Virus record (IMG/VR): IMGVR_UViG_3300043570_000986
Location: 23,246-87,245 of that record
DNA length: 64,000 nt
Direction: 5' to 3' (one strand)
Source: a virus
Position numbers and translations under genes: made by a program. Below are positions 60,481 to 62,406 of this stretch, one piece after another (within the stretch, counting starts at the first letter, position 1; each line of letters opens with the position of its first letter). A model generated the notes under the pieces. It saw only the letters and a list, made by a program, of their open reading frames with translations, was not told the DNA's origin and made no database searches.

Positions 60481-61338
60481 TTAAAATATGTATCTAATTG
60501 TATTCCAAGGAATTATCTCATCATGTAGTTTTACAAAAGACTTTATGAAATCATTTTTTAAATCATGTCTATATCTTATGTTTAAACCACCATATTGAGA
60601 TACTTTGTTTTCTTGTATTGTAGGAACCCATAAATATTCTTCTTCACCTGGAATGTTATTAACAATGTTATAAACATGTTTATTTTCATTGTGAGTAAGA
60701 AATATTACTTCTGCTTTAACAACATTTTTATAACTAACATAATCATTAACCATGTGAAATAAATATTCATATTCTTCTAACCAGTTACCTGCAACTATTA
60801 CAGGACTAAAGTTAATATGAACATCATATCCTGCATCTATGAATGCATCAATAGCTTTAATTCTATCAATGATTTTAGATGTGTTAGGTTCTAATTTATC
60901 AGACATAATTTGTGGCATTAGACTAAATCTTATTCTAATCTTACCTTCAGGATTATAACCTGTTAAACTTGGGTTCACATACTTAGTAGCAAATGAACCC
61001 ATAGCTGTAGGATGTTGTTTAAAGAAGTCAAATATCTTTTGCCATTCATGATGTTTAGCATGTAATGCAAAATCTTCATTACATGAAATATCATAAGTAA
61101 TATAATCATTGTGTGTTTGATTAGGTTTTTCAACATCAGCAAAAGCACAATGATTATTAATTGCTGTAAGTATGTCCATTGTATTAGTTGCTACATCTAA
61201 ACCTTCAGGTTTATGTCTTTTCATATAGCAATATCCACAATTATATAAACAGCCATATCCAAAGCTTGGACTAATAAAATCAGTTGATCTACCTGATGGT
61301 CTAATCAACATAGATTTTCTTTTAATTTTTTCTAGCAT
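60481..61338 (-). CDS. Radical SAM protein resembling spore photoproduct lyase
   Basis: 285 residues. GCLYNCGYCYMKRH holds the iron-sulphur motif C30-x3-C34-x2-C37. The CxYCY spacing and later DISCNEDFALHAKHHEW, with Cys86, parallel the spore photoproduct lyase family, where a Cys in a similar S/TSC-x-D segment donates the hydrogen atom. The C-terminus IPWNTIRYIF also resembles that group. It may repair thymine damage in phage DNA or modify a base. The size is close to the lyase core. Substrate identity is inference. Confidence 0.7.
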   Translation of the reverse strand: MLEKIKRKSMLIRPSGRSTDFISPSFGYGCLYNCGYCYMKRHKPEGLDVATNTMDILTAINNHCAFADVEKPNQTHNDYITYDISCNEDFALHAKHHEWQKIFDFFKQHPTAMGSFATKYVNPSLTGYNPEGKIRIRFSLMPQIMSDKLEPNTSKIIDRIKAIDAFIDAGYDVHINFSPVIVAGNWLEEYEYLFHMVNDYVSYKNVVKAEVIFLTHNENKHVYNIVNNIPGEEEYLWVPTIQENKVSQYGGLNIRYRHDLKNDFIKSFVKLHDEIIPWNTIRYIF

Positions 61339-61679: not shown

Positions 61680-61711
61680 TTAAAAACCACCTAGGACTTT
61701 CCTAAGTGGTT
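61680..61711 (-). terminator. Terminator of the tRNA-like RNA locus
   Basis: On the minus strand AACCACTTAGG-AAAGT-CCTAGGTGGTT forms an 11-bp stem (one wobble pair) followed by TTTAATTT. It lies about 25 bases beyond the tRNA-like 3' end. Confidence 0.75.
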
Positions 61712-61735
61712 ATTTGTTATTTACTTTTAATTAGA

Positions 61736-62090
61736 GAGATAATCAGGAGTCGAACCTGAGGCATCTTAAACACTATTGTGTTTTAAGAAGTTGCATCCTG
61801 GACCACACCAACTAGTATTTATGTTTCCATTATCCCATAGTGATGTCTTTCCATCAGTCATAACTTATCTTGCAGTTAACCGTGTTCCCTTTTATTTCAG
61901 AGACCAATCACCGCTTATGTTAAAGTGCTTTGCGGTAACACTATTTGTGAGCACAAGTTATCTCCTCTTACTATAAGATATGAATGAAGCCAAGCAGGGC
62001 ATCATATCTCCTTACCTGACGTGAATAGTCAATCAGAGACCCCAGCTAGGATTTTAGAGTCCAGCGGTGGCTTTACCTTGTGCTCAATAT
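61736..62090 (-). ncRNA. Structured RNA with a tRNA-like 3' end
   Basis: At 61743-61759 the minus strand reads TCAGG-TTCGACT-CCTGA, a perfect T-arm with canonical TTCRANY loop, followed directly by TTATCTC as the 3' acceptor strand. The exact complement GAGATAA occurs upstream at 61958-61964, and GGGATAA (one G-T pair) at 61820-61826. Neither yields a normal 75-90 base cloverleaf, so this is a tRNA with a large insertion, a tmRNA-like RNA or a tRNA mimic. Further stems are present: TGAGCACAAG/CTTGTGCTCA (10 bp, enclosing ~130 bases) and AGATATGA/TCATATCT. TCTTAAAACAC pairs with GTGTTTAAGA (one bulge) just before the T-arm. No protein frame is convincing. The 5' end is set by the upstream gene's stop. 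Confidence 0.65.
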
Positions 62091-62091
62091 T

Positions 62092-62406
62092 TTAATTTTC
62101 TATTAGTTTTAAATTACTTTCTTCAATTAATTCCATAATGTCAATCTTACCCAATTCAGTACATTCTTTCATTAGTTCTATTAATTGATTTAAACCATCT
62201 TGAGTAAAAGCAAATCTATCTAATCTATAACTTGTATATTCTAATGATTTAGTTTGTACTTCATTTAAAGTAACACCTTGAATTCCTTGATTAACATGGT
62301 AATATACATAATTTATAGTATATTTTGTTCCTTCAATAATCCAGTTTTCAGGTAGTATTTCATTAGGTTTATTTTTATCATTTATACATAAGCAAGGTAC
62401 ATTCAT
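62092..62406 (-). CDS. Hypothetical early protein
   Basis: 104 residues. It begins MNVPCLCINDKNKPNEILPE and contains EGTKYTINYVYYHVNQG. This start pattern (short Cys-containing strand, then N-WI-EG-x-YT) recurs in small phage proteins as I recall, with no function assigned. It is the gene directly upstream of the structured RNA. Confidence 0.55.
   Translation of the reverse strand: MNVPCLCINDKNKPNEILPENWIIEGTKYTINYVYYHVNQGIQGVTLNEVQTKSLEYTSYRLDRFAFTQDGLNQLIELMKECTELGKIDIMELIEESNLKLIEN

What the first reader, a model, noticed from the sequence alone, without database searches (positions are those of the whole stretch)
61736..62090. Long RNA ending in a perfect tRNA T-arm and acceptor strand, without a normal cloverleaf
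TCAGG-TTCGACT-CCTGA-TTATCTC is unmistakably tRNA-like, and GAGATAA, the exact acceptor complement, lies 222 bases upstream. A 10-bp stem and several hairpins fill the ~355 bases, and a terminator follows. Options: tRNA with a large intron, tmRNA-like molecule, or a tRNA mimic. Around 62045 the hairpin GCTGGA-CTCTAAAA-TCC resembles an anticodon arm containing CTA, so a split suppressor-type tRNA should also be tested.
Basis: partly seen in the sequence, partly recalled or inferred. Interest (0 to 1): 0.7.

Follow-up and report, generated by a model that had tools for sequence, protein, structure and literature searches.

The report
Anticodon-less tRNA-like RNA in phages
A phage of aquatic bacteria carries a ~101-nucleotide RNA that has the ends of a transfer RNA but no anticodon arm; base-pair-preserving changes in five other phages show it is a real, apparently undescribed RNA family, and related phages carry many other tRNA-like RNAs that seem unable to read codons, function unknown.

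Summary
The T-arm and acceptor strand are really there, but the 355 bases hold three separate RNA modules, not one long tRNA or tmRNA. (2) Module B, 61938-61841: a leader shared with four phages, ending in a UGAC/GGAAAGA hairpin 4 nt before (3) 'type W', 61836-61735: a tRNA-like RNA whose 5' acceptor strand is GGGATAA (61836-61830). Type W recurs in five other phages, including cultured Cellulophaga phages phi4:1/phi17:2, where it is unannotated at the end of the tRNA array. All 23 proposed pairs form in all six sequences and 13 show compensatory changes. It has no D-arm or anticodon arm; an 11-bp hairpin with an invariant tip follows the acceptor directly. ARAGORN and Rfam find nothing, yet find tmRNA and a group I intron in relatives. 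In the closest relatives the same slot holds a different tRNA-like RNA, of a class (constant tRNA-Leu-like scaffold, hypervariable middle) present in at least 120 IMG/VR stretches. Function is inferred, not shown.

The parts
61735..61836 (-). Type W tRNA-like RNA (whole element, discriminator base included)
   Evidence: Covariance model R1 hit, 105 bits, E 5e-25 (the window is one of the six sequences the model was built on); six homologues, all 23 pairs kept, 13 with compensatory changes
61830..61836 (-). 5' acceptor strand GGGATAA (7 bp with 61742-61736, one G-U)
   Evidence: Covariation with AGGGTAA/TTACCCT (L221), GGGGTAA/TTACCTC (L222, L225), GGTAACG/TGTTATC (L223), GGAGTTA/TAACTCT (phi4:1)
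61799..61829 (-). Hairpin H1, 11 bp, replaces the D-arm; invariant tip AATACTAGTTGG (TGGA-A-ACAT-A-AAT-ACTA-GTT-G-GTGT-GG-TCCA)
   Evidence: RNAalifold on A1, five pairs with both-side changes; L222 versus L225 differ by a double change (TGAA/TTCA versus TGGA/TCCA)
61788..61798 (-). Conserved linker GGATGCAACTT (GGRTGCAACTT in all six), possible D-loop equivalent that would dock on the T-loop
   Evidence: Conserved columns in A1; the docking is inference
61765..61787 (-). Variable hairpin H2 (CTTAAAACAC-AATA-GTGTTTAAG); no 7-nt anticodon loop
   Evidence: Sequence and MFE fold; variable in the homologues
61743..61759 (-). T-arm TCAGG-TTCGACT-CCTGA
   Evidence: T-stem covaries in homologues
61736..61742 (-). 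3' acceptor strand TTATCTC (then T, no encoded CCA)
61841..61938 (-). Leader module B: GTTACCGC/GCGGTGAT helix, TCTCT..AGGGA helix, TAACT/AGTTA helix, then the UGAC + GGAAAGA hairpin
   Evidence: 61908-61841 is about 93-96% identical over 68-71 nt in L005, L226, L221; the match in L227 is shorter, 52 nt at 94%; TAACT/AGTTA becomes TAGCT/AGCTA in L221, hairpin stem CGGG/CCCG in L227
61841..61860 (-). TGACTGATGGAAAGACATCA hairpin, 4 nt before the 5' acceptor strand
   Evidence: Same motif placed about 3-5 nt before other tRNA-like RNAs
61948..62087 (-).
   Evidence: Near-identical core in L390 with a different closing stem (TTACAAG/CTTGTAA), without a T-arm downstream; no Rfam match
61685..61711 (-). 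Intrinsic terminator after type W
   Evidence: 12-bp stem, 5 G-C, T-rich tail
62092..62406 (-). Upstream 104-aa ORF, ends 5 nt before module A; the RNAs probably sit at the 3' end of its transcript
   Evidence: promoter-like sites in the region no more frequent than in shuffles

Best explanation
61836-61735 (minus) encodes a non-decoding tRNA mimic of a new RNA family ('type W'). It is made as the last part of a polycistronic phage transcript that also carries modules B and A and stops at the terminator at 61711-61685. Inferred steps: host RNase P cuts at the 5' acceptor end, host 3' tRNA maturation enzymes trim the 3' end and add CCA, and the acceptor/T-arm end keeps the RNA stable and visible to tRNA-binding proteins. 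With no anticodon arm it cannot act as an ordinary adaptor. The conserved H1 tip and GGRTGCAACTT linker are the functional core. I think its likeliest role is as a bait or competitor for a host factor that handles tRNAs (tRNA-targeting defence nuclease, toxin, modification or processing enzyme), which would fit the swapping of such RNAs at one genomic slot. Shown: existence, structure, family, context. Inferred: transcription, processing, function.
For: Six-sequence alignment: 100% of 138 pair cells standard, 13 of 23 pairs with both-side changes, 0 of 500 shuffles as good; slid partners give 35-49%. The covariance model separates the six phages (105-129 bits) from all ordinary tRNAs and other tRNA-like RNAs in ~1.5 Mb of loci (below 27 bits). 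Cultured phages phi4:1 and phi17:2 carry it at the end of their tRNA arrays, with no feature annotated there; L223's copy is also in a tRNA array. Promoter-like sites are no more frequent than in shuffles, and one strong terminator lies just downstream. In the closest relatives (99% and 97% identical neighbour gene) the slot holds a different tRNA-like RNA, L002-L004 and L005; L005 keeps the same leader B. Large phage tRNA arrays (28-29 genes listed by ARAGORN) contain extra tRNA-like RNAs, most of which lack a canonical anticodon arm. Published precedent that phage tRNAs may be shaped by host anticodon nucleases: PMC10264068.
Against: No transcript, CCA tail or processing data. Only six distinct sequences. 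MFE z-scores of single members are weak (-0.2 to -1.9), so the case rests on covariation. The discriminator base is not constant (T or A), which argues against one fixed aminoacylation identity. No link to any defence gene was looked for. The bait role is inference from context only.
Confidence: 0.42

Rival explanations
1. Processing punctuation: the tRNA-like fold serves mainly as an RNase P / 3'-maturation site that cuts the polycistronic transcript (as mitochondrial tRNAs do), releasing the neighbouring mRNA or ncRNAs; the body of the RNA has little function of its own.
For: The constant-scaffold tRNA-like RNAs of related phages often lie 10-39 nt before a start codon on the same strand: 81 of 166 have an ATG ORF within 150 nt versus 19 on the opposite strand; L221's type W is about 18 nt before an ORF; what is conserved in that class is the acceptor, D-arm and T-arm that processing enzymes read.
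Against: In the window a terminator separates type W from the next gene, and in L223, L225 and phi4:1 the next ORF is 158-301 nt away. Type W's H1 tip and linker are conserved in sequence, which a mere processing site would not need. 50 of 202 inserts of the other class fall into 19 families shared between elements, nearly all of them from different contigs.
Confidence: 0.25
2. A structured non-coding RNA whose action lies in H1 and H2 (antisense, protein-binding or RNP scaffold) and which uses the tRNA end only for stability and 3'-end protection.
For: Invariant H1 tip and conserved linker; companion structured RNAs A and B in the same presumed transcript; tRNA ends are known stable scaffolds (own knowledge).
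Against: No target found; hypervariable inserts of the other class showed no matches outside tRNA-like elements beyond short stretches, mostly shared scaffold, in the part of the output that was printed.
Confidence: 0.21
3. A functional charged adaptor with unusual geometry: H1 stands in for the anticodon arm (6-nt tip UACUAG) and the RNA is aminoacylated and used in decoding, for example at UAG or by frameshifting.
For: H1 has an invariant tip containing CUA; relatives and this phage carry tRNAs or tRNA-like RNAs with 6-nt anticodon loops.
Against: H1 starts directly at the acceptor with no unpaired residues 8-9 and no D-arm; the tip has no U33-like residue in the right place; TAG is used as an ordinary stop in 4 of 51 ORFs; the discriminator base varies.
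Confidence: 0.06
4. A decayed tRNA pseudogene kept by hitch-hiking in the array.
For: It lies in tRNA/ncRNA clusters and is missed by ARAGORN and Rfam.
Against: Compensatory changes in acceptor, H1 and T-stem across six phages, conserved linker and tip: this is purifying selection, not decay.
Confidence: 0.04
5. One long RNA: a tRNA with a ~130-nt intron or a tmRNA-like molecule that pairs GAGATAA (61964-61958) with TTATCTC.
For: The 7-bp complement is exact and the 10-bp stem is real.
Against: Chance of such a complement is 6.7%; GAGATAA belongs to module A, conserved without T-arm in L390; true partner shown by covariation; Rfam finds real tmRNAs and a group I intron in relatives but not here.
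Confidence: 0.02

Closest known systems
tRNA (Rfam RF00005), type II (long variable arm)
   Same: 7-bp acceptor stem, 5-bp T-arm with TTCRANT loop, found in phage tRNA arrays
   Different: No D-arm, no anticodon arm; an 11-bp hairpin directly after the acceptor; not called by ARAGORN or Rfam in the window
tmRNA (RF00023), tRNA-like domain
   Same: tRNA-like domain without a standard anticodon arm; relatives L015 and L221 do encode a phage tmRNA near such RNAs
   Different: ~101 nt only, no tag-coding part or pseudoknots seen, no Rfam score at E<=10
Stable RNAs C and D of the phage T4 tRNA cluster (own knowledge; not found in the paper library)
   Same: Small stable RNAs of unknown function encoded inside a phage tRNA array
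   Different: No sequence comparison made here; T4 is an unrelated phage
Plant-virus tRNA-like structures (own knowledge)
   Same: tRNA mimicry by a viral RNA end
   Different: Those are 3' ends of RNA genomes; this is an internal module of a DNA phage transcript
GOLLD / ROOL phage-associated ornate RNAs (own knowledge)
   Same: Non-coding RNAs often beside phage tRNAs
   Different: Type W is small and tRNA-like; no Rfam match to either
Phage tRNAs with altered anticodon loops predicted to resist anticodon nucleases (PMC10264068)
   Same: Phage tRNA-derived RNAs proposed to be shaped by tRNA-targeting defence
   Different: Those remain decoding tRNAs; type W has no anticodon arm

Membership tests
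tRNA | 7-bp acceptor stem and 5-bp T-arm with TTCRANT loop | tested here: met
   (covarying)
tRNA | D-arm and 5-bp/7-nt anticodon arm | tested here: not met
   H1 replaces the D-arm, H2 has no 7-nt loop and varies; ARAGORN and Rfam silent
tRNA | Aminoacylation and use in translation | not testable with these tools
   Needs an experiment
tmRNA (RF00023) | Matches the tmRNA covariance model | tested here: not met
   No match at E<=10, while L015 and L221 score 56-66 bits
Group I intron (RF00028) | Catalytic core matches the model | tested here: not met
   No match at E<=10; positive control in L222, 78 bits
Suppressor tRNA (CTA) | CTA anticodon in an anticodon arm of the same molecule; TAG recoded | tested here: not met
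   The CTA hairpin lies in module A, a separate RNA; TAG ends 4 of 51 ORFs
Type W family (defined here) | Acceptor + H1 with tip AATACTAGTTGG + GGRTGCAACTT + T-arm | tested here: met
   Model R1, 105 bits; six phages 105-129 bits, everything else below 27. The six are also the sequences used to build the model.
RNase P substrate / tRNA punctuation | 5' end produced by RNase P at the acceptor | not testable with these tools
   Needs RNA ends or in vitro cleavage

The most novel reading that the evidence does not exclude
Phages of aquatic Bacteroidota carry swappable sets of tRNA-disguised effector RNAs: type W and a large class with a constant tRNA-Leu-like scaffold and hypervariable middle, cut out of transcripts as if they were tRNAs and used against host tRNA-handling or tRNA-targeting systems. 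This would be a new class of phage counter-defence or regulatory RNA.
Probability: 0.25. Interest if true: 0.85.

Novelty: new variant of a known kind. Interest (0 to 1): 0.62.

Why it matters
ARAGORN and Rfam's tRNA model miss these RNAs, so a common feature of environmental phage tRNA arrays has probably been overlooked. Two cultured phages (phi4:1, phi17:2 on Cellulophaga baltica) carry type W, so expression, processing and function can be tested directly. It bears on the open question of why phages carry tRNA arrays: part of an array may not be for decoding at all. Four paper searches aimed at phage tRNA-like or non-canonical phage tRNA RNAs returned no description of such RNAs; that library holds only open-licence papers.

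Tried and rejected
GAGATAA as acceptor partner (rejected by L390 and covariation). tmRNA, group I intron, trpB motif (30.6 bits against a cut-off of 59, helped by the terminator) and miRNA hits: rejected. Suppressor tRNA: rejected. Inserts as antisense guides: BLAST of ~195 inserts against all held loci showed, in the part of the output that was printed, only other tRNA-like elements and short matches (16-19 nt) that are mostly shared scaffold; one 19-nt match (L195 insert to L137) was not followed up, and the output was cut. By eye some inserts looked like coding fragments; this was not supported by that search and not tested statistically. Host origin of the scaffold: the exact T-arm/acceptor string occurs in only 4 MAG contigs among 84,980 genomes, probably phage contigs, not checked further. 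One test query of the constant-scaffold class has no match in 50,697 phage records. Searches for more type W homologues with a looser pattern gave the same five contigs. Module A: no cultured-phage match worth noting, only L390 in IMG/VR.

Full report
Observation. On the minus strand the T-arm TCAGG-TTCGACT-CCTGA (61759-61743) and TTATCTC (61742-61736) are present, GAGATAA lies exactly 222 nt upstream, a 10-bp stem closes 62087-61948, and a terminator lies at 61711-61685. ARAGORN and Rfam find nothing in the window; with E<=10 in the region only sub-threshold hits appear. In shuffled windows such a T-arm occurs 0.48 times per 64 kb and with a matching acceptor 0.05 times; an exact complement of TTATCTC within 450 nt upstream occurs in 6.7% of shuffles. 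The window alone therefore does not settle the case.

Which phage. The window is part of an 87-kb IMG/VR virus record. The DNA polymerase matches phrog_1252 and a structural protein phrog_28748; a 4215-aa ORF contains a DFDID motif, which I recall as typical of crAss-like phage RNA polymerases. That the host is a member of Bacteroidota is inferred from the Cellulophaga phage match, not shown.

Homologues of the tRNA-like part. A weak BLAST match in Cellulophaga phages phi4:1 and phi17:2 lies at the end of their tRNA arrays, where no feature is annotated. A degenerate pattern then found five IMG/VR stretches: L221, L222, L223, L225 and L224, whose length and match identify it as phi4:1; a looser pattern found the same five. 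Counting phi4:1/phi17:2 once, this gives five other phages and six distinct sequences. In each, seven bases just before the conserved TACTAGTTGG domain pair with the seven bases after the T-arm: AGGGTAA/TTACCCT, GGGGTAA/TTACCTC (twice), GGTAACG/TGTTATC, GGAGTTA/TAACTCT, and GGGATAA/TTATCTC in the window.

Structure. RNAalifold on the six sequences gives the acceptor stem, an 11-bp hairpin H1 that starts directly at the acceptor, and the T-arm. Counting named pairs: 23 pairs, all 138 cells standard, 13 pairs with changes on both sides, none of 500 shuffles as good, partners slid by 1-3 columns give 35-49% paired. L222 and L225, which are close to each other in sequence, differ by a double change inside H1 (TGAA..TTCA versus TGGA..TCCA). 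Conserved parts are the H1 tip AATACTAGTTGG and the linker GGRTGCAACTT. The region between linker and T-arm (H2) varies, and nowhere is there a 5-bp/7-nt anticodon arm. MFE folding recovers acceptor and T-arm in all five members folded and the complete H1 in four of them, though z-scores are modest. A covariance model (R1) scores the six members at 105-129 bits and every other tRNA or tRNA-like RNA in ~1.5 Mb of loci below 27 bits; the window's own record holds no second copy. The members were used to build the model, so their own scores are not independent.

What the rest of the 355 nt is. GAGATAA is thus part of another RNA. Its last part, UGAC plus a hairpin with GGAAAGA, stands 4 nt before type W.

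The slot and the wider class. In the closest relatives (neighbour gene 99% identical in L002-L004, 97% in L005) the same slot holds other tRNA-like RNAs with the scaffold AGTCAGG-D-arm-[middle]-ACAGG-TTCGAAT-CCTGT-CCTGACT, with small variations. Of 202 distinct elements, ARAGORN, several with 2- or 4-base anticodons, and 155 not at all; 22 have a 5-bp/7-nt arm in anticodon position, while 159 keep a D-stem, with many pair types. Fifty inserts fall into 19 families, nearly all shared between contigs. In three fetched records with large tRNA arrays (G025, G027, G052; 28-29 ARAGORN genes each) such elements lie among the canonical tRNAs. The GGAAAG hairpin motif stands upstream of 27 of 201 elements, 22 of them 13-20 nt before, against about 2 expected by chance in a 45-nt stretch; sampled independently, 21 of 108 such hairpins are followed by a tRNA-like acceptor/T-arm against a control of 1. 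This class was searched by its own sequence, so the constancy of the acceptor is partly a product of the search.

Mechanism. Shown: a structured, conserved, tRNA-like, anticodon-less RNA family in phage RNA arrays, and different tRNA-like RNAs at one slot in close relatives. Inferred: transcription with the 104-aa gene upstream, RNase P and 3' maturation, stability, and a bait or competitor role for a host tRNA-handling factor (about 0.42 for the whole explanation). That type W is a real RNA family whatever its function I hold at about 0.93.

Known or new. It is not a member of tRNA, tmRNA or group I intron families by the tests made. It works most like the general idea of a viral tRNA mimic, and T4's RNAs C and D (own knowledge) are the nearest precedent in setting. 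Paper searches aimed at phage tRNA-like RNAs returned no description; the library is limited to open-licence papers.

Noticed in passing
L084-L203, for example L095, L101, L135: Large class of tRNA-like RNAs with constant tRNA-Leu-like acceptor, D- and T-arms and a hypervariable middle in place of the anticodon arm, in tRNA arrays and just before genes of uncultivated phages.
   Followed up: partly
L275-L389; window 61860-61841: Widespread hairpin motif TGAC-N-(stem)-GGAAAGAC-(stem) in phage intergenic regions, before genes and tRNA-like RNAs, not matched by Rfam in the 20 loci scanned.
   Followed up: partly
L015:6018-6406, L221:2201-2589: Phage-encoded tmRNA with a conserved 33-aa tag (GNNDSKLGTILDL..ALANNMLVKTE..AA) next to the tRNA-like RNAs; ARAGORN also lists a tmRNA in G025.
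   Followed up: no
L253:4381-4453 minus (the window phage's record, outside the window): tRNA with a 6-nt anticodon loop (CCTGA-TATTAA-TCAGG); ARAGORN reports a 2-base anticodon.
   Followed up: no
L029:2919-2987, L034:3555-3623, L041 near 2200-2269, L171 (minus strand, near 75): Short tRNA-like RNAs with 6-nt anticodon loops (ATAGTA, ATTAGT, ATTGGT) and covarying anticodon stems.
   Followed up: no
L222, L225, L226, L008: Another stem-closed RNA with core GAAGTGGCTYAATAAAACCGARAGCC..GCAACCGG, upstream of tRNA-like RNAs in the first two; the closing stem differs between phages.
   Followed up: no
L222:2295-2552: Group I intron (RF00028, 78 bits).
   Followed up: no
window 60481-61338 minus: ORF with a cysteine motif (GCLYNCGYCYM) that suggests a radical SAM protein; no PHROGs match, 390 related stretches in IMG/VR.
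   Followed up: no
L064:4382-4482, L068:4382-4483: tRNA-like RNAs with a hairpin inserted into the D-loop; a hairpin similar to L064's occurs beside tRNA-like sequence in L118, L119, L152 and L175.
   Followed up: no
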